64,000 nucleotides of DNA from Ananas comosus (Eukaryota; Streptophyta; Magnoliopsida; Poales; Bromeliaceae). Below the pieces are notes generated by a model. That model was not told where the DNA came from, did no database searches, and saw only the letters and a list, made by a program, of their open reading frames with translations. Within the stretch, counting starts at the first letter, position 1, and each line of letters begins with the position of its first letter. The stretch lies in assembly GCF_001540865.1 (NCBI RefSeq), contig NC_033628.1:3421077-3485076 (forward strand), written 5' to 3'. A program made the translations under genes and the position numbers. Positions 1,846 through 16,102 of the stretch are shown piece after piece.

Positions 1846-3081
1846 CTAAAAAAGGGTCTTACGGTCAAAGAGAAACAGCATCAGAGGCACCATCCCCTCA
1901 CCATTCTCAACCCAACGTATACTCTTGTCGCTCATCCTAAACACCCCGGCCCTCAACGGCTCTCCCTTATCTTTGCGCGCTTCCGCGAAGTAGATGCAAT
2001 TCTCCTCCAACCCCGGCGGCGGCGCCTCCTCGACCGGCACGCAGACACAGCCGCACCGGCTCACTACCGCTGCCATCGCCTTCTTCCCCTGCAGTCCCTC
2101 CTGCTTCTCCCACTTCCTCGCCCAGCGGCCGCGATCGTCCTCTACCAGCTTAAGCACTTCGAACCCTAAGGCCGAACTCCTCTCCACCAACACCGCCTCC
2201 CCGTCGCAGTTCGCCAGAAACGCCCTGCTGTAACTCCGCCAGTGTTGCATATCCGGCATCAGCACCGTCACGACCGGCGGGCGCCTGCTTCCGGACGACG
2301 ACGAGAATTCGAACGAGACGACGCGCCCCGTGAGCGCCACCGCGATCAGCTCCCGCGGTGCGACGAATATGGCATCCTTGTAGTAGTAGTCAAAGTATAC
2401 TCGATTGAGTTCCCACGGCTCGTGCACGGCCGTCCACTCCGCATCTCCCGGCCTGCAGACTGCCAGGTGGTTGAACCAGTACACGGCCACGGCGAGGCAG
2501 TCTGGCGAGTCGGGCGGGGCCGACAGCGCGATCTTTTTCACGTACAGCGGGTTTCTCTGCCAATTGTCGGCGTCGCCGAACCCCGGCGGGAGGGTCAGCG
2601 TCGATATCGGCGGCAGCTCCACGCGAGCTGTCACCGGAACCTGGCGGAGGAGGAACACGCGCCCGGAGGCGGTCACGGCGGCGATCCAATCGTCGAAGAG
2701 CCCGCAGCACCGGAAGCGGTAGGAAGAATCGGAGAGCTGAAGGTTGAGGGAAGGGCTGATGAGGCGGCGGAAGTCGCCTTCGGGGTCGGCGGAGAGCGCC
2801 AGCAGCGAGTTCTTGCGCTGCAGGTGCGGGTAGTCGGTGACGGCGGTGGCAGCGCTGCGCCATGCAGAGCACGTCTCGCGGAAGCAGACGAAGGACGGGG
2901 GGTCAAGCTGCGCCGCGACGTTGTGCAGCACGTCGACAAGGAGGTGGCGGCGGGCAATGGAGGCCGTGATCATTGTTTTCCTGCGCGTCACTTTGGCGTC
3001 GTCGTCGTCGCCGGTGGTGGCAGCAGCAGCCTTTTCTTCTTCTTCTTCGCTGTGGGGGCGGCGATCCTCGTAGTTAGCCAT
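1846..3081 (-). CDS. F-box/DUF295 (KIB1-4 beta-propeller) family protein
   Basis: An uninterrupted 411-residue frame starting at ATG 3081, in the context typical of single-exon plant F-box genes. An acidic, low-complexity N-terminus (EEEEE and DDDD runs, residues about 11-28) is followed by an F-box-like helical segment at about 45-90 (LDPPSFVCFRETCSAWRSAA). The rest fits the DUF295/KIB1-4 kelch-like propeller: FDDWIAAVTASGRVFLLRQV, YVKKIALSAPP, VYWFNHLAVCRPGDAEWTAV, FLANCDGEAVLVER, GFEVLKLVEDDRG, ENCIYFAE and a final GVFRMSDKSIRWVE. Family members act as substrate receptors of SCF ubiquitin ligases or, like the KIBs, bind kinases; the substrate here is unknown. A decayed copy lies 4 kb to the right. 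No frameshift is seen, so this looks like the intact member of the pair. Confidence 0.85.
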   Translation of the reverse strand: MANYEDRRPHSEEEEEKAAAATTGDDDDAKVTRRKTMITASIARRHLLVDVLHNVAAQLDPPSFVCFRETCSAWRSAATAVTDYPHLQRKNSLLALSADPEGDFRRLISPSLNLQLSDSSYRFRCCGLFDDWIAAVTASGRVFLLRQVPVTARVELPPISTLTLPPGFGDADNWQRNPLYVKKIALSAPPDSPDCLAVAVYWFNHLAVCRPGDAEWTAVHEPWELNRVYFDYYYKDAIFVAPRELIAVALTGRVVSFEFSSSSGSRRPPVVTVLMPDMQHWRSYSRAFLANCDGEAVLVERSSALGFEVLKLVEDDRGRWARKWEKQEGLQGKKAMAAVVSRCGCVCVPVEEAPPPGLEENCIYFAEARKDKGEPLRAGVFRMSDKSIRWVENGEGMVPLMLFLFDRKTLF

Positions 3082-3520
3082 TTTAATTAATTTGCTTTTT
3101 TGTGGTTTTGTTGAAAGTGTAATTTTCTGTTATAGTAATTGTTGTAACTGATCGATATTTGTGATGATATCAATTATATAATCTAAACCAAAATATAATA
3201 CGAAAAAAAGATATTAAGAGAGAAAAAAAATATATAAATTAATATTTTATTAATAAAAAATATTTAAATTATGAGTAACACCCATGTAGCCATGTTTACT
3301 GTAACTTATTTATCTAATTAACTCATGCCTAACTATATATAGCTATCAAGTCATAACAGATGATAAATCGAACTTTTACTTTGGATAACAACAAATTCTG
3401 ATCATAATCAGATAATAAATTTAAACTTATCTCTAACTATATTTTAATTAAGTTTGGATTATTATTCTAATATATACAATAATTTTATCACGTGATTAGA
3501 TTGAATAATTTTTTAAAAAG

Positions 3521-4217
3521 TGTCACGCCCCGGATTACATGTTCCCCGGGCACGTTGACAAATCCGCCGTATACAATGAAATTTTTTCTGTATACGAAGC
3601 GATAGTTGTACATGTAAAACATACAATACTACAAACGGTAGTATAGAGCTGCCAGAAGAACCAGTAATTAAAAACAAACTGAGTTTCATATACATACGTC
3701 AAATCCAAGATACCAAACTACTCGCACTGGCGAGTTAAACATCTGAATGTACATGAACTCCAATTAGAAACAACTACCTGCTGTAGGGGCACCTCTAGCT
3801 CGGCTCGTCTGGTAGGGCTCTAACTCGCGACACTCTTGCTTCGATGCTGAGCTCGATCCTGATCAGCAACAGCAGCAGCCGAAAACGATGGCTCTGCAAA
3901 AACGGGGTAACAATAGGTTGTGAAAACTACTGTAAAAATAAGTAGTCCTCAGTGGGTGCGGCCCTCAACATCATTGGTCCACCCACTAAGTCTATAGAAA
4001 GGAGCAAAGATAATAATAATTGTTGGAATAAAATCTACAGTTACAAGTTATTACACTATCATGCTCGAAACTAACCTATTGTAGTGATGTCAATCCCGAC
4101 CCAATCTCTTTAGGGACTGTAAACATACCCGTCCCAGGGACTGTGAATACACCCGTCCCGCCCAGTTGGGACCTACCTCCACACTAACTAGTCCGTGGAG
4201 AGCAAGTCCAATCGGCA
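3521..4217. mobile_element. LTR fragment (TGTCACGCCCCGG family), cut at an n
   Basis: Begins TGTCACGCCCCGGATTACA and runs parallel to the first roughly 700 bp of the solo LTR at 30921-33508, including CCGCCGTATACA, GTATACGAAGCGATAG, ACTCGCACTGGCGAGTTAA, the AGTAGTCCTCAGTGGGT block and the CACTAACTAGTCCGTGGAG block. It stops dead at the single n (4218), so the remaining roughly 1.9 kb is missing from the assembly or deleted. It lies in the upstream region of the F-box gene, about 440 bp from the start codon. Confidence 0.85.
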
Positions 4218-4218
4218 N

Positions 4219-4350
4219 TTTAATTTTTATATTTAATTTTTATATTTTTAAAATTTTAAATTAGATTAAAAATTAAAATATTAAAAAAATTATTTAAAAT
4301 ATGTTAAAAATTATGTAAATTTTCCGCGGCGAAGCGCGGGCCTCCACTAG
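4219..4350 (+). mobile_element. Helitron 3' end
   Basis: An AT-rich tail leads to a GC hairpin at 4324-4340 (CCGCG loop CGCGG) and then CTAG at 4347-4350, followed by T. A short GC hairpin about ten bases before CTRR with a T target base is the diagnostic 3' terminus of Helitrons. The rest of the element is lost at the n (4218). Host flank related to 7880-8455 resumes right after it. Confidence 0.65.
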
Positions 4351-7092: not shown

Positions 7093-7317
7093 GTGGTAGG
7101 AAGAATCGGAGAGCTGAAGGTTGAGGGAAGGGCTGATGAGGCGGCGGAAGTCACCTTCGGGGTCGGCGGAGAGCGCCAGCAGCGAGTTCTTGCGCTGCAN
7201 NNNNNNNNNNNGGTAGGAAGAATCGGAGAGCTGAAGGTTGAGGGAAGGGCTGATGAGGCAACGGAAGTCATCTTCGGGGTCGGCGGAGAGCGCCAGCAGC
7301 GAGTTCTTGTGCTGCAA
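7093..7317. repeat. Direct repeat flanking an N gap
   Basis: About 106 bp to the left of the 12-base N run (7200-7211) is repeated to its right with several differences. The left copy encodes QRKNSLLALSADPEGDFRRL, as in the intact gene; the right copy encodes QHKNSLLALSADPEDDFRCL. The two sides probably come from different paralogues joined across a gap. Confidence 0.75.
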
Positions 7318-7540
7318 GTGCGGGTAGTCGGCGATGGCGATGGCGGCGCTGCACCATGCAGAGCACGTCTCGCGGAAGCAGACGAATGACGGGGGGTCAA
7401 GCTGCGCCGCGACGTTGTGCAGCACGTCGAAAAGGAGGTGGCAGCAGGCGACGGAGGCCGTGATCATTGTTTTCCTGCACGTCACTATGGCATCGTCGCT
7501 GGTGTTTTCTTCTTCTTCTTCTTCTTCTTCTTCTTCTTCT

Positions 7541-7751
7541 TCGCTGTGTGGGCGGCGATCGTCCTCGTTAGCCATTTTAATTTGCTCTTTCGTGGTTTTG
7601 TTGGGAGGGTGATTTGCACTAATACTAATTGTTTGAATTAATATTCGCTGTGTGGGCGGCGATCGTCCTCGTTAGCCATTTTAATTTGCTCTTTCGTGGT
7701 TTTGTTGGGAGGGTGATTTGCACTAATACTAATTGTTTGAATTAATATATA
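7541..7751. repeat. 105 bp tandem duplication over the pseudogene start
   Basis: The block from TTCGCTGTGTGGGCGGCGAT through GTTTGAATTAATA occurs twice in a row with a 105 bp offset. It duplicates the start codon and first residues of the F-box copy, so a second decoy ATG lies near 7680 that quickly runs into a stop. Confidence 0.85.
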
Positions 7752-8518: not shown

Positions 8519-9009
8519 TAGTTATATCAAAATCAACATAAAAATAAAAATTTGAAATTTGAAAAACATAAATTCATATTATAGAAAATATCTGACATCC
8601 TTAATTGTCATTAGTTGTTTTAATTAAGATATTTAGATTAATTACTATTATATATGTTTTGAATTTTAGAATTGATTGCACCATTTTTTAAGACTTAGTT
8701 TGATATTGAGACTCATTTGAGTCTATTAGATAAAATGGAGTTGGAATAAAAGCATGTAGAAATATGAAAAACATAAATATCAATAGTTATATTAATAGTT
8801 ATATCAAAATCAACATAAAAATAAAAATTTAAAATTTGAAAAACATAAATTGATATTATAGAAAATATCTAACATCCTTAATTTTCATTAGTTGTTTTAA
8901 TTAAGATATTTTTTAGATTAATTACTATTAGATATGTCTCGAATTTTAGAATTGATCGCAAGATTTTTTAAGACTTAGTTTGGTATTGATACTCATTTGA
9001 CGCTATTAG
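8519..9009. repeat. Tandem repeat of about 215 bp
   Basis: 8519-8733 and 8797-9009 share TTATATCAAAATCAACATAA, ATAGAAAATATCT, CATCCTTAATT, TTAGTTGTTTTAATTAAG and AGACTTAGTTTG, ending in CTATTAGA. The second copy ends exactly at the CACTA terminus at 9011. A related tail (AGTTTGGTATTGAGCTC, CTATTAGATAAAATGGAG) recurs near 10508-10556. Confidence 0.75.
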
Positions 9010-9010
9010 A

Positions 9011-9860
9011 CACTACAGGAAAATATACAATTCCCGGCGATTCGCTAGAGGCGGTTGTAAAAACCGCCTCTACAAAATAGCAACAGGCAGCATATAGAGG
9101 TGGTTTGTAAAACCGCCTTTATTTTCTTTCTCTTTCCCTTCATTTTTATTTCCCTCCTAGCCAACCCTAACTTTCCCCTTTCACGATCCGCACACGCGCG
9201 AAATAATTTCCCCTTTTTCACTCCGCGCGCGAACGCGAATCCTCTTTCCCCTTCGCCTCTTTCCGCTTCTTCGCCGCTTCTTCGCCGCAGAGTTAGGGTT
9301 CCCCTTTGCTCGGAACCCTTCGCCTCTTTCCGCTTCTTCGCCGCTTAACTCTGCGCAAAACCCTAACTTCGCCGCCTCTTTCCGCTTCGCCGCTTCGCCC
9401 CAATCTTGTCGGACCTCCTTAATTTCTCCCTTCTCTAACTCCCATCGCCTTCTCCAAGCTCTGAGGATGCCCTAGCTCCGCCGCTTCGCCGGAGCTCCAC
9501 CCGAGGCCGGAGCTCCACCCGAGCGCCCTCACGTCGCCGGAGTTCTACCAAACTCGCGCCTTCCTCAACCTGCTGCGACCTTTTTGTCTGTTTACTGTGC
9601 AAAGTTACACTTTTACTTACCTCCTCTGTTAACTACTAATTATACTTATAGTCCAAGTCATTACACCTCTTTGCCTCTTTCCCCTTCGCAGCTTCTCCTC
9701 TTCGCCGCTTTGCCTCTCCGCGAACGCCTACGGTGCAGACTTCCTCTCTTCAATCAACTTCCTCGATCGACGACGCCGTGTTAACCTCCTCATTTTCGGC
9801 AAGCTTTTTTCTCAAGCTTCTTCCAGGTTTGTAGTTATTTTTTAAAAAATCTCCATTAGG
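9011..9860 (+). mobile_element. CACTA (En/Spm) transposon end with transcript-like leader
   Basis: Starts CACTACAGGAAAATATAC, a typical CACTA-superfamily terminus. Inverted subterminal words follow (GAGGCGGTTGTAAAAACCGC and GAGGTGGTTTGTAAAACCGC). Then comes a GC- and pyrimidine-rich stretch (9180-9790) that looks like the untranslated leader of a captured or element gene. It ends in a splice-donor-like CCAG|GTTTGTAG near 9825. I do not find a convincing opposite terminus or a transposase frame, so this is an end fragment or an element with unrecognised limits. Confidence 0.55.
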
Positions 9861-10811
9861 GTTCTTTCCTTCTCTTATGATCTGCTTGTGCGAAATAGAA
9901 TAGCTATTAGTTTCCTGTTGAAGTAATAATTTACCTAGGCGAGTAGGCTAGTTTGATCAATCCAGTTTGAGTTCTTTTGCCTTTACTTTCGGTTTGAGAT
10001 CTTGTGGAGGTTCCCAGCTACCAAAATACAGTTCTAAGATAAGCTCTTGGTTTTCTTTCTGGACAGAACAGAGTATAGTAGCAAGACAAGAATACATATT
10101 AGCTTCGTAATTTAGTTTCATAAAGGTGTAAATTAACTAAATGAGTGGCTGTATTCATAAATATTCTAAAGTTTTAATAGCAAACTCTACTTCAATCCAA
10201 AAAAAAAAAACTTACATTGCTATGAAATGCTAAAATTTTATAGTGAGGATGCTAAGTGTGCCAGCTTTTGCATTTGGCTTAATAATGAAATTTGGTGGTG
10301 GATGCTCTTGATATCATTTTTATTAGTGAAAAAAAAGTAGCTTTTGAGCTTTGGGATAAAAACATATGGAAAAATGTTTCTACGTTCTCCGGTGGGACCG
10401 TAGAAAATATATCTACGTACGAAAATAAACAGAGTATTTTTCCATCATAGTTTTTCACCACATGTAACGCATTCTCTCCGCGCGCAATTCCAAACGAAGC
10501 CTAAGATGTAGTTTGGTATTGAGCTCTATCTAACACTATTAGATAAAATGGAGTTGAGAAAAAAAACATATAGAGATATGCTTCTGCGTTCTCCGATAGG
10601 ACCATAGAAAATATATTGTAACCGACTAATTGCGATATGCGGAACGCAATATTATGTACGAAAATAAATAGGATATTTTACCATCGTCCTTTCTTACCAT
10701 ATGTAACGTAATCCCCGTGCAATTCAAAACCAAGCATAAATTAAGTTTAGATTATGCTTAATTTTATTGAGATTAATCCTACTTATAGTAGGATTTAGCA
10801 ACTATTATAAA
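9861..10811. other. No gene seen
   Basis: Mixed AT-rich sequence. Two related blocks (10360-10490 and 10540-10720) share words such as TACGTTCTCCGGTGGGACC / TGCGTTCTCCGATAGGACC and GTAGAAAATATAT, so they are copies of an uncharacterised repeat. Confidence 0.4.
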
Positions 10812-11084
10812 GAATTAGGTTACTATACTATCTATAGTACCGGAGCTCCGGTCTTATAGTCTTGTTTTCGATCTTAGGGTGTTCAAATTAACGATCCGCA
10901 CCGTTAAATATAATATAGGGTATATGAAGTTCTTAGAAATAAAATTTTAGCTTTTTTCGATATCGTTTACTTAGTAAATAAATTATGTCAAAATGAACGG
11001 TGGAAATTGAATAATATTTAAAATTTGAGCATAAGGCTTTTAAATTCAAGATTAGGGATGTCAACGGGTCGGATTCGGGGCGGG

Positions 11085-11283
11085 TTTTTAAAAACCCGAA
11101 CCCGAACCCGAGTACCAAATCCGAAACCCGAACCCGAACCCGAACCCGATGGATTTTAAAAATCCACATCCAAACCCGAACCCGAGCAAAAACCCGAAAC
11201 CCGAACCCGAAAACCCGAACCCGAATCCGAACCCGACCAAAAACCCGAAACCCGATTCCAAACCCGAAAACCCGAACCCGAAA
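11085..11283. repeat. Left subterminal CCGAAC hexamer array of the hAT
   Basis: Many CCCGAACCCGAA units, some varied (CCCGAAACC, CCGATTCC), interrupted by ATGGATTTTAAAAATCCA. Its inverse is the TTCGGG array at the other end. Subterminal arrays are common transposase-binding regions in hAT elements. The translated frames (Gly/Phe or Val/Arg repeats) are an artefact. Confidence 0.85.
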
Positions 11284-11597
11284 ATAATATTTACCAATTT
11301 CGAAACATATTATACAAAAAACTAAAATTTCAAACAACATATTCAAATACAATATTAAACATCCATGTCATTAAAAATACATATTCAAATACAATATTAA
11401 ACATTCATGCCATTCAAAATACATATTCAAATAAAACATTAAACATTCATGCCATATAATAGCGATATCAAAATATGAAAAGTACAAACACAAATACTTA
11501 AAAACAACAATACAATTTTCATATGTCTAATATAAATGCACAACTTCTAAATAGAGCACAACATAATATGATATTAAGATTTAAAACAATCTTCCAC

Positions 11598-12681
11598 NTA
11601 CACTATAAGCTAACTGTAACGTACTCACCAGATATCTAGTATTGCTTTACTAATCTAGATACCGACTTTTTTACAATGTTTTCAAACTATTTATAACCGT
11701 ATATTAAGTACCGTAATACCCTCACCGTTGGCAAAATCTAGGTTCTATATTCGACTGAAACAACCTAACGATAAAAAGTTAATAAATAGTATGACTTCAC
11801 TTGTTCCTTCAACTGTCTTAAGCTTTTAACACAGTACTGGAGGACCAACTCATAGTTCTATCTTTATTCGCTCTCTTTCTTCAACCACCACTTAGAAGAG
11901 TAAGTAAAAGAAGAAGGTATTCACTTCAATCGTTGTCATCATATCACCCATCCTTCTTAAAATGACGATAGATACTAGATATATACTATGTTTTTTTTTA
12001 GTTGTAGATGATGTGGACGTTTTAGACTTAACCTAGTAATAAACCTCCTTCTATGAAATGGTTCTTGTCTACTAAAACTGCATAACCGAACCACCTTCTC
12101 ATTACCCGAGTTCATAGGATGGAACTACTACTATCGATCTCTATAAGAACGATATGAACAAAGATGATAACGTAGCCTCAGCCGTAAATCGTGATCACCT
12201 TCTAAAGATTGAGGTGTAGCTTTATCCGAAGTAGGGCTATAAAATCTTCGTAACTACACGTGAGCACTAACCAAAACCCGTTTCAAGGTAGTTCTTCCAT
12301 TATATTATTTTATACTCAATCAAAAAATTTGAGATAGATTATATGAATAAAAAATATAAAATAAACGTCTAAGAAGATGTCGATGTAGTATAATAGCTGG
12401 AAGTAATCTAGTACTACTGCTGCTGCTTCGACCGTAGTAATTACAATTACTCCATTGAAGATTAGTTAAAAAAATAATTTTTCTAATACTCTTAAATAAT
12501 AAAGTTTTTATGAAAACATTATATGACCTGAAAACGTTTAACGCCTCAAGCTCATACACCTTACCACACACCTAGTTAGGATGTACAAGATTTTCTAATC
12601 TTGTTCAAAAACCTATTCAATCTCCTACTAACCTTACGATTTTCACTCTTTAACGTAACTAGACGCTTTTAGTACCTTTTC
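11598..12681. other. Mirror-imaged segment encoding the hAT C-terminus
   Basis: Complementing the displayed strand base by base but keeping the left-to-right order gives a long coding frame from 11600. It begins CDIRLTLHEWSIDHNEMIRS, the expected continuation after the NLFF that ends the normal minus-strand part at 12682. It continues through KFDKYWHIIHGIMGVATVLD, SELDHYLEEDTLPRTDDFDV, then WWKSNGLKYPTLMMIARDIL and the hAT dimerisation core ASESAFSTSGRFLTPHRNRL, HPDILEALMCTRDW. One homopolymer slip (about 11991-11999) shifts the frame. A donor-like GAAG|GTAAT and TTTGCAG|A then join to DSSTATSYYRPSLDHDDDDE (12370-12452). Neither real strand encodes this. The left edge is the n at 11598; the right edge is near 12681. 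Confidence 0.9.
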
Positions 12682-14068
12682 GAAAAAAAGATTAGCAGTT
12701 GGATATCTTGTTCCTGAAAATATTTCGGTCACACTATAAAATAACTCAAGTCTCTCACACATGTCCATAGCTATAGCCCAATCATCTTCTGAAGGCAAAC
12801 ATTTGTATAAGGGCTCACGAAGCTTCAAACGTGAGAAAACATCTCTATATATCAAAGCAGATTAAAGCATTAAATATGTAGAATTTCACCGTGTTTTACA
12901 ATCAAGCACCAACTTTTTAGTACTTGAAATATCCAATTGTCGGGCCGTTTCTTCAAATTTTTCCTCTCTTTTTGGAGTTGCCTTCCAAAATGCAACACTA
13001 TCTTGTATTTTTTCAAGTACATCTCCAATCACCTCTAATCCATCTCTAACAATTAAATTAAGAATATGTGCACAACACCGCATATGAAAGAAATGTCCAC
13101 GAACCATAAGAGACCTCCTCTCAAGTTTATCTAATAAGATATCTACAATGGCATCATTAGAACTGCAATTATCTACTGTTAAAGTAGATAGCTTTTTATC
13201 AAGATTCCAATCAATAAATGTGTCCATCAATACTTCAGAAAGTGCATCGGCAGTGTGTGGACAAGGTACATATGCAAACCTATAATAGATATCTAATAAG
13301 TTATATGAATAAGATAAATAAAAAATTAAGACAAATTATATGCACAAAGAAAGAAAAATACCTCAACACTCGACTTTGCAACATCCAAGAATCATCAATG
13401 AAGTGAGCCGTGATAGCCATAAAACCTCTTTTTTGATTCTTAGCTGTCCACATATCCGTAGTAATAGCTATTCTACTTCGATTGAATTTCAATAAATTCA
13501 TAGTCTTTTCCTTCTCATAATCATAAATTTTTAAGATATCGCTTCTCACCGTATTTCTAGAAGGTATTTTAAATACCGGTTGAAGTGAAGCCGAATATCT
13601 TCTAAACCCCACATGCTCTACCATAGAAATGGGATATTCATGCATGATAATCATTGATGCTAACTCCTTTCTTGACACTTCTTGATCAAAGGTGAAGTTG
13701 ACAACTTTTACTTTCTCATCTCCATATTGTTCTAACTTTAATTTTTTTTGATTTACTATATCTTTTATGTCTCGAAATTTACGATTGGAACAAATCTTAA
13801 GATGAGAATGTAAGTGGCTTGTTCCTTTTTTTCCATCCCCACAAAGTTTTTTGCCACAATAATTGCACTTAGCCTTAATAATTTCACCATCTTTTTCTTT
13901 TGTAAAATGATTCCACACTAATGAAGTTGTTTTCCTTTTCGTTACCTCATTATTTTCTTCATCATCACCAATACTATCAATTGGAGATGGATTTGATCCG
14001 ACATTTGTATAAATAGTAAGTGGTGTCGATGAAGGTAGAGGGGTTTCATTAGTTGGTTGTGTAGACAT
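12682..14068 (-). pseudogene. hAT transposase (BED finger, RICESLEEPER-like), disabled
   Basis: Exon A (14068-13362) starts at MSTQPTNETPLP just after a CAG acceptor and holds a BED zinc finger (SLVWNHFTK, CNYCGKKL, HLHSHLKIC) and an RNase H-like start (SRIAITTDMWTAKNQKRGFM, ITAHFIDDSW). A GAG|GTATTT donor and TATAG acceptor join it in frame to exon B (13279 onward): FAYVPCPHTADALSEVLMDT, LTVDNCSSNDAIVDILLDKL, RCCAHILNLIVRDGLEVIGD. After DCKTR, two codons of the conserved RWNSTYLMLQSALIYRDV run have become stops: Trp to TGA (12886-12888) and Gln to TAA about ten codons later. The frame then continues to GTRYPTANLFF at 12682, where the normal-orientation sequence ends. The C-terminal third lies in the mirror-imaged block. 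The protein would bind element ends and catalyse cut-and-paste transposition; this copy cannot. Confidence 0.92.
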
Positions 14069-15576
14069 GTTCACCTGAAAAAGATATTTGCTAGCATTAA
14101 AAAAACTCCACAATTGTAACAGCATCAAGAAATGTAAATGACAACTTGGATGCACAATGGTAATAGCAGCATGTACATTGTTGGACTTACCAAGCTAATA
14201 CAAATGAACAGAACTCTGGAGAGTATTGATTTGGCGGCGCACAAGGTGCTGGGTGATCCACGATAGCCTCCAAAAGTTCATAAAAGCTCAGCCAACCTTC
14301 TTCCTCTTCAGATGGTATATAAGGAAAACGGACAATAGCACATTCCAGTATTACCAAGCCCAAACTCCATATATCACTTTTGTAATCATAAGAGCTTCCG
14401 CTTTTCGCTCAGGCTAAAGAATAAAAAAACACAATATACTATAAGTTAATGTTTCTATTATAATTCGAAGATGGAAAATGCTCATCTAGTTTCGAAAGCA
14501 ATAACTGAATATTTAGGCTGCAAAAGAAAGAGAAGGCCTTTCTGCCAGAAAACAAAGTAAATTTGTCAAAACGAAACACACTGCCTATTTTTCTATTTTT
14601 ACGACTTTAGCTTACTTTTCAACTTATGGAGCACACTGCCTTCCAATACAAGACCATGATGCATAGTTCTAAACTATTGGTGTGCAGTTTTAGCATATGT
14701 TTTAGTTCATATGTTGATCATTCAGGATAGTCCATGGTAGTTGTAGGATGAGCTCACAGTTTTATCACAAAAGTTGAAAACTTGGCTAGACTTTTCAACA
14801 TCCATAATTTCTTAGTCAACATCCATAAGAATTAAAAGATTATTAATTTAAAAAATAAAATAAAAAATTAGGGAAAAAAATGAACACATATTTTTGCTCA
14901 AAAAAATCATAAGAAAAAAAGGGAAAAAAGATGAAGATAAAAAATGAATTCATATTTTTGCTCAAAAAAATCATAAGAAAAAGAGAGGGAAAAAGATGAA
15001 GATAAAAAATAAACGCACATTTTGCTCAAAAAAACCATAAGAAAAAGGGGGGGGAAAGATGAATGTCAATGGAAGACGAAGAACGAACTAGCCGAAAGCC
15101 ACTGCCGGGAGTGTGCGAATGGCGACGTTGGAAGAGCCCTGTATGCGCCGCTGCCAAGGAGGGTCTTCGCCTCTTCGGGCGTAGTCGCGGCCACAACAGA
15201 GACAAAGCAAGAGGCGGCCACAAATGACAAAAAGCAAGGGGAGGACACAACAGAGAGAAAGCAAGAGGCTCGCCTCTTCGCCGCTGCGTGAAGGTCTTTT
15301 GGAAAAAAGGAACGAGTTAGGGTTAGGAGGAGGTGAAGTTAAAAGCTGATGGAATATTAGCCGTTAGATTTTGATCCAACGGTTGAAAATATAGGTGAGC
15401 CTCTTTATAAATAAGTTGGGCTTTAAGTTGGGCTAAATATTTTTAAAATAATAATCTATACTATTTATTTATATACAAATATAATTATAAAACTGTAAGT
15501 ATTAATTTTTTTTTTGGCCTTTAGATTCAGATCTAAAGGCTTAAATTTTTTTTGTATATTATATTATATTAAATTT

Positions 15577-15650
15577 ATTCGGGTTCGGGTTCGGGTTCGG
15601 GTTCGGGTTCGGGTTCGGATTCGGGTTCGGGTTCGGGTTCGGGTTCGGGT
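15577..15650. repeat. Right subterminal TTCGGG hexamer array of the hAT
   Basis: About twelve near-perfect GGTTCG units in a row with one ATTCGG variant. It is the inverted counterpart of the array at 11085-11283. Weaker CATATCCAAATC-type words continue to the terminus. Confidence 0.9.
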
Positions 15651-16102
15651 CGGTTACAGTCAATATCCATATCTGAATCCATATCCGTCGGGTTTTTATT
15701 TTTTTATATCCATATCCAAATCCATATCCATTTACATCGGATAAAATCCGTCCCGTTCGGATTTGGATTCGGATAAAATTCGGGTATCCGTATCCATTTA
15801 CATCCCTATTTAAGATCAAGAATGTTAACTTTAATTTAGATCCAAAATTTGAAGAAATTTAGACTCTTCTACACAGTTAAACTCCAAACTCGCCATAGTA
15901 GCCATTACAAATTTACAATTTTGAAATGGTTTGATCATAAAGTAAACTATGTCGAAAAAATATAAAATTTTATTTCTTAAAATTTTAAATATCCTATATC
16001 AGTTTTAACGGTGTGGATCATTGATTTAAACACTTTAAGATCAAAAAAGAGACTACAGTACCGGAGTCCCGGTACTATTGATAGTATAGGAGACTAGCTC
16101 CC

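What the first reader, a model, noticed from the sequence alone, without database searches (positions are those of the whole stretch)
11598..12681. Mirror-image DNA: transposase C-terminus readable only by complementing without reversing
Neither true strand of this 1.08 kb encodes anything, yet the base-by-base complement read left to right gives about 230 consecutive residues of a hAT C-terminus. These include KYWHIIHGIMGVATVLDPRY, the dimerisation core ASESAFSTSGRFLTPHRNRL, plausible GT-AG intron borders and a final acidic exon. It begins (CDIRLTLHEW) where the normal minus-strand frame stops (NLFF at 12682). A biological inversion gives a reverse complement, never a plain reversal, so this points to a contig piece reversed but not complemented. 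The n at 11598 marks one edge.
Basis: partly seen in the sequence, partly recalled or inferred. Interest (0 to 1): 0.95.

Follow-up and report, generated by a model that had tools for sequence, protein, structure and literature searches.

The report
Backwards assembly error in pineapple genome
A 1.1-kb stretch inside a broken jumping gene is written back to front, without swapping the bases, in a plant genome assembly (most likely pineapple); living DNA cannot do this, so it is a software error, and a second case in the same assembly suggests that the error recurs.

Summary
Bases 11599-12673 are written in reversed order without complementing. Read by complement only, they give PF14372 (3.1e-21) and PF05699 (3.6e-32), continuing the minus-strand hAT transposase codon for codon: 118 of 120 relatives put adjacent residues on either side of the seam. 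Reversed, the block matches 7 of 7 fetched paralogous copies in the same genome (best 94.9% over 933 bp); as displayed it matches 0 of 7. A k-mer test without homology picks the same block as the strongest segment of the window.

It is an assembly artefact, not biology. The block lies at a contig end, between the contig body and a single n. In 200 kb of the same assembly taken without regard to content, one of 10 single-n sites carries another: L011 3572-3880 is the exact reverse of sequence just across the n. Turned round, the two contigs there overlap by about 430 bp at 100%, which explains that unmerged joint. The genome (382 Mb) is most likely pineapple F153 (inferred). The genome-wide rate could not be measured (search machine busy).

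The parts
11599..12673 (.). Mirror block: sequence order reversed without complementing (1075 bases)
   Evidence: Reversed block matches 7 of 7 fetched paralogues; displayed block 0 of 7; k-mer LLR +37.6 against a mean of -19.6 in 57 other windows, highest other +13.4 (k=6)
11598..11598 (.). Single n, outer edge of the block (contig joint)
   Evidence: same geometry at L011 3881
11600..11998 (.). Complement-only coding: hAT RNase-H-like part (CDIRL...MIQKK), PF14372 profile 16-100
11991..11999 (.). Run of nine A (in complement-only sense) where the frame shifts
   Evidence: Read by eye; frames
11991..12323 (.). Complement-only coding: hAT dimerisation region, PF05699 profile 1-84 of 84
12298..12369 (.). 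Possible 72-base GT-AG intron in complement-only sense, followed by an acidic exon to about 12452
   Evidence: partly supported
12517..12673 (.). Tail of the mirror block, not matched in the fetched hAT copies; reversed, it aligns over 143 columns at 84% to L014
   Evidence: k-mer LLR of 12453-12673 exceeds 283 of 283 other 221-base windows at four word lengths
12673..12674 (.). Seam between mirror block and normal contig (about one base ambiguous)
   Evidence: 118 of 120 relatives give adjacent residues across it; 7 paralogues run through it, L008 with small gaps nearby
12674..14083 (-). Normal part of the same hAT transposase pseudogene (BED finger to NLFFEKV), with two in-frame stops and an intron inferred at about 13280-13361
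   Evidence: intron read by eye
11053..15808 (-). Whole hAT element with terminal inverted repeats TAGGGATGT and 8-base target duplications TTCAAGAT / TTTAAGAT (7 of 8)

Best explanation
This is an assembly-software artefact. A contig whose normal part begins at 12674 carried about 1,075 further bases at its left end, running into the 3' half of an hAT transposon. When that end was written out, its bases were put down in the order of growth: on the minus-strand view they were complemented but not reversed. The contig end therefore reads back to front. No overlap with the left contig was found, and the contigs were placed side by side with one n. Shown: the reversal, its edges, its place between contig body and n, and a second case with the same geometry. 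Inferred: that the step was contig-end extension, merging or gap closing, and that a missing (or extra) reverse operation caused it.
For: Protein: complement-only hits and codon-exact continuity in 118 of 120 relatives. DNA: the reversed block matches 7 of 7 fetched paralogues (L002 over 284 bases only, because its own single N lies there; L008 at 72.8%) and the seam is continuous. Composition: best segment of the window for all four word lengths, left edge 11571-11576, right edge 12666-12868; +14.1 to +37.6 against negative means in 57 windows, z 3.4 to 5.1. L003, a copy without N, carries both flanks in the right order, with 110 bases between the turned block's matching part and the left contig, and both flanks lie inside one element with matching ends, so the scaffold join itself is right. 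Second case: L011 3571-3880 is the exact reverse of 4003-4312 (310 of 310), and the 120 bases before it equal the first 120 after the n. Other N joints also have unmerged overlapping ends, e.g. 206 bases at 100% in L027.
Against: None against the reversal. The software step is not identified: no reads, no assembly log, and the paper I looked up as the original genome paper is not held. The other five N runs of the window show no mirror block (highest flank score +2.1, right of 4218 over 200 bases), nor do nine of ten single-n sites and both 100-N runs in the sample, so the error is not universal. L024 157 (left flank +5.0) and L012 9150-9992 (+14.1) were not resolved. The reversed block and the left contig show no overlap at the n, unlike L011.
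Confidence: 0.97

Rival explanations
1. The reversal was introduced after assembly (curation, pseudomolecule building, file conversion or preparation of this window) rather than by an extension, merging or gap-closing step.
For: The tools cannot see the original contigs. The genome copy held by the tools carries the same letters as the window (L001, 4,381 bases, 100%), so it is not private to the window file, but that copy may share any later step.
Against: Both blocks end at a single n and at a contig end, one right and one left of its n. A later step that handles whole scaffolds would not reverse contig ends only.
Confidence: 0.06
2. A natural inversion or rearrangement of the transposon.
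For: Inversions occur in transposons (general knowledge).
Against: An inversion gives the reverse complement. The block as displayed, searched on both strands, matches 0 of 7 fetched paralogues, while its plain reversal matches 7 of 7. A plain reversal would need 5'-5' and 3'-3' joins (established chemistry).
Confidence: 0.005
3. Coincidence: the complement-only reading resembles a transposase by chance.
For: None.
Against: E-values 3.6e-32 and 6e-117, DNA identity of 94.9% over 933 bases; the RAF1 control gives 0 of 120.
Confidence: 0.0001
4. A real, unknown biological process writes mirror-image DNA.
For: Only that the letters exist in the assembly.
Against: Both cases lie at contig ends beside an n. 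In L011 the displayed mirror copy duplicates normal sequence on the other side of the n at 100%, as expected for two overlapping contig ends read from the same DNA. No polymerase or ligase known to me makes such a product.
Confidence: 0.0005

Closest known systems
Plant hAT transposases of the RICESLEEPER type (PF02892, PF14372, PF05699)
   Same: Domain order, TAGGGATGT ends, 8-base target duplication; 1,636 relatives at E <= 0.001, best 120 listed
   Different: The C-terminal third is printed backwards; two stops and a frameshift; nothing biologically new
Negative gaps / unmerged overlapping contigs (as described in PMC3504050, passages seen)
   Same: Adjacent contigs that should overlap but were not merged; here several N joints have overlapping ends
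   Different: In the two mirror cases the contig end itself is reversed without complementing; in L011 this hides a perfect overlap
False duplications from an assembler bug in FALCON (PMC8081667, passage of a figure legend seen)
   Same: A fault of an assembler left in an assembly
   Different: That bug duplicates sequence; this one reverses it

Membership tests
hAT transposon (RICESLEEPER type) | hAT C-terminal dimerisation domain PF05699 | tested here: met
   3.6e-32, profile 1-84 of 84, complement-only reading
hAT transposon (RICESLEEPER type) | RNase-H-like part continuous with the N-terminal part | tested here: met
   PF14372: the minus-strand piece aligns to profile 1-22 (weak, E 0.026, below cut-off; the last 7 residues lie past the seam), the block to 16-100; 118 of 120 relatives give adjacent residues
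hAT transposon (RICESLEEPER type) | BED zinc finger | tested here: met
   PF02892 1.8e-6
hAT transposon (RICESLEEPER type) | Short terminal inverted repeats and 8-base target duplication | tested here: met
   TAGGGATGT at 11053 and inverted at 15808, 7 of 8 bases of the duplication; five coordinate pairs passed the one-mismatch scan, this one has matching ends
Reversal without complement (artefact) | Plain reversal, and only that, restores homology to independent copies | tested here: met
   7 of 7 reversed, 0 of 7 displayed
Reversal without complement (artefact) | Word composition of the mirror type | tested here: met
   artificially reversed control windows score positive in 47 of 57 (k=3) and 52 of 57 (k=5)
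Reversal without complement (artefact) | Raw reads contradict the displayed order | not testable with these tools
   No reads held
Natural inversion | Reverse complement restores homology | tested here: not met
   Displayed block searched on both strands: 0 of 7 fetched paralogues

The most novel reading that the evidence does not exclude
The assembly (probably pineapple F153) carries mirror-image contig ends as a systematic error: 1 of 10 single-n sites in the sample chosen without regard to content. If that is typical (about 10 single n per 200 kb, so some 19,000 in 382 Mb; a rough extrapolation from one case), there would be hundreds to a few thousand backward pieces, each invisible to ordinary homology searches and able to break a gene or repeat. 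The same code fault may sit in other assemblies made with the same pipeline, and the word-composition test used here could find them without any reference.
Probability: 0.6. Interest if true: 0.6.

Novelty: not a real feature. Interest (0 to 1): 0.42.

Why it matters
It is not biology, but it is a kind of error that normal checks miss: a backward piece has no homologue on either strand, so it can pass as unique or species-specific DNA, truncate gene models and leave unmerged duplicate ends. If it recurs across the genome, as the second case suggests, users of this reference should screen and mask single-n joints. A composition test that needs no homology can find such blocks when they are long enough.

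Tried and rejected
Considered and rejected: natural inversion, chance, wrong scaffold join.

Led nowhere: a search for a short protein that crosses the seam found 22 relatives, none above 60% identity and no exact copy. The left contig and the reversed block show no overlap at the n. Literature searches for this type of error gave no listed title or abstract start that describes it; these are listings, most papers were not opened, and one search matched 971 papers of which 20 were listed. Of papers I saw only passages: PMC3504050, PMC6022998, PMC8081667, PMC8774480. A genome-wide count using a reversed retroelement piece did not complete. Mirror-frame ORFs beside the other N runs were listed (52) but not scanned against Pfam. 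In one search I mislabelled 22 hAT proteins as RAF1; one search replaces it.

Full report
OBSERVATION. Bases 11599-12673 have no long open frame on either true strand (longest 83 aa, minus), but read by complement only they have frames of 142 and 113 codons. These match Pfam PF14372 (3.1e-21, profile 16-100) and PF05699 (3.6e-32, profile 1-84 of 84). The true minus strand just to the right matches the start of PF14372 (profile 1-22, weak, E 0.026, below the cut-off; without gaps its last residue before the seam falls on profile 15, the block's first on 16), and further upstream the BED finger PF02892. The dimerisation part also matches Hermes transposase structures (1.3e-11).

SEAM. The best relative, P0001 (427 aa, 91% identity over 62% of the query), aligns residues 1-185 to the minus strand 13227-12673 and residues 186-427 to the complement-only reading 11600-12323, so no residue is missing between them. 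Of 120 hAT relatives, 118 place adjacent residues on the two sides of the seam; two give other values (-43, -59), which I did not examine. The most economical edges are block 11599-12673 and contig start 12674; about one base is ambiguous because both candidate bases are T.

CONTROLS. 120 of 120 hAT relatives hit the block in complement-only reading, one alignment running left past the n to 11513. In normal reading 120 of 120 hit the gene right of it, and 25 have alignments running past the seam by at most 27 bases. Of 22 further short relatives, 22 hit in complement-only reading and 6 run past the seam in normal reading (to 12607). 120 of 120 RAF1 proteins hit only in normal reading. A word-composition test (normal against reversed Markov model, both strands pooled) needs no homology. 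The best mirror-like segment of the window is 11576-12680, 11571-12868, 11573-12677 and 11571-12666 for word lengths 3 to 6. With each tested window left out of training, the block scores +14.1, +18.0, +23.8 and +37.6 against means of -3.7, -6.7, -11.4 and -19.6 in 57 other windows; the highest other windows reach +2.3, +4.1, +8.7 and +13.4. Artificially reversed windows give positive scores in 47 of 57 (k=3) and 52 of 57 (k=5), so the test works but is not perfect.

DNA IN THE SAME GENOME. The window lies in a genome of 381,958,007 bases in 3,128 contigs, at C8:3421077-3485076. That search listed 18 matches to the normal part of the element and gave loci for eight: the window's own and seven others. 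The block as displayed, searched on both strands, matches none of the seven; its plain reversal matches all seven: L003 94.9% over 933 bases, L007 92.4%, L004-L006 81-82%, L008 72.8%, and L002 97.2% over 284 bases, up to its own single N. With the block turned round the alignments run through the seam. L003 has no N and carries both flanks in order; between the part matching the turned block and the part matching the left contig it has 110 bases. The last 157 bases of the block (12517-12673) are not matched in L003-L006 or L008 (the matches of L007 and L002 end earlier); reversed, they align to L014 at 84% over 143 columns. They are therefore also mirrored, but may be a place where the contig strayed into another repeat, which would explain why it did not meet the left contig (inference).

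WHY AN ARTEFACT. Both flanks belong to one transposon: ends TAGGGATGT at 11053 and, inverted, at 15808, with target duplications TTCAAGAT and TTTAAGAT. The join is therefore right and only the piece next to the n is wrong. DNA cannot be reversed without complementing, since that needs 5'-5' and 3'-3' joins (established chemistry).

SECOND CASE. I took 200 kb from the same genome without regard to content (10 kb at 5.00 Mb of C1 to C20). It holds 10 single N and 2 runs of 100. The strongest mirror signal outside the block is L011 3573-3873 (+22.5), ending beside a single n at 3881. L011 3571-3880 is exactly the reverse of L011 4003-4312 (310 of 310), and the 120 bases before it equal the first 120 bases after the n. 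The right-hand copy is the normal one: it matches a repeat in the window as it stands, while the left-hand copy matches it only when reversed (89% over 136 bases). Since base 3571 equals base 4002 (both G), the block is best taken as 3572-3880. Turned round, the left contig then overlaps the right contig by about 430 bases at 100%. This shows the fault: a contig end written backwards, so that a perfect overlap went unseen and a single n was left. Several other N joints have unmerged overlapping ends in normal orientation, for example 206 bases at 100% in L027.

RATE. In the sample, 1 of 10 single-n sites has a proved mirror block; in the window it is 1 of 4, but the window was chosen because of it. 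The other N runs show none (for five in the window, for eleven in the sample), with two unresolved weak signals: L012 9150-9992 (+14.1, near a single n at 8959) and the left flank of L024 157 (+5.0). Detection of short blocks is weak, so 1 of 10 is rough. A whole-genome count was attempted but not answered.

ORGANISM. The RAF1 gene at 17.8 kb is 100% identical to a protein on a 13,970,067-base contig whose source is not shown; the nearest named relative in the list is Typha latifolia at 64%, and C8 has that same length. The total of 382 Mb equals that given for the pineapple F153 assembly in PMC6022998 (passage seen), and PMC8774480 (passages seen) speaks of 25 pineapple chromosomes and of chimeric regions in F153. 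I infer pineapple F153; no tool states it. The passages seen mention no reversal without complement.

MECHANISM. Shown: plain reversal, contig-end position, single n on the outer side, overlap destroyed by it in L011. Inferred: the contig end grew outwards from the contig and was written in growth order, i.e. one reverse step was left out (or one added) in an extension, merging or gap-closing program. The program is not identified.

VERDICT. As biology it is not a real feature; as an assembly fault it is clear, unusual and probably recurrent.

Noticed in passing
L011 3572-3880 (C3:5003572-5003880): Second mirror block in the same assembly, exact reverse of sequence that starts 121 bases beyond the single n at 3881.
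   Followed up: yes
L012 8959-9992 (C4): Moderate mirror-like composition (+14.1 for 9150-9992) to the right of a single n; the two contig ends also match each other over 194 bases at 90% in normal orientation.
   Followed up: partly
window 7095-7316: A run of 12 N is flanked by the same 105 bases on both sides (96%): unmerged contig ends inside a second copy of the gene at 1846-3129, which matches PF03478, KIB1-4 beta-propeller.
   Followed up: partly
window 7540-7748: Tandem duplication of 105 bases at 100% identity, possibly another assembly duplication.
   Followed up: no
window about 14195-14410, minus strand: Kinase-like fragment (PF00069, E 1.7e-4, below the curated cut-off; likeness to a MAP kinase kinase is recalled, not tested) between the transposase and the right end of the hAT element: possibly a captured host gene piece.
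   Followed up: partly
L027 2515 (C19): Single n with the same 206 bases on both sides (100%): an unmerged overlap in normal orientation.
   Followed up: no
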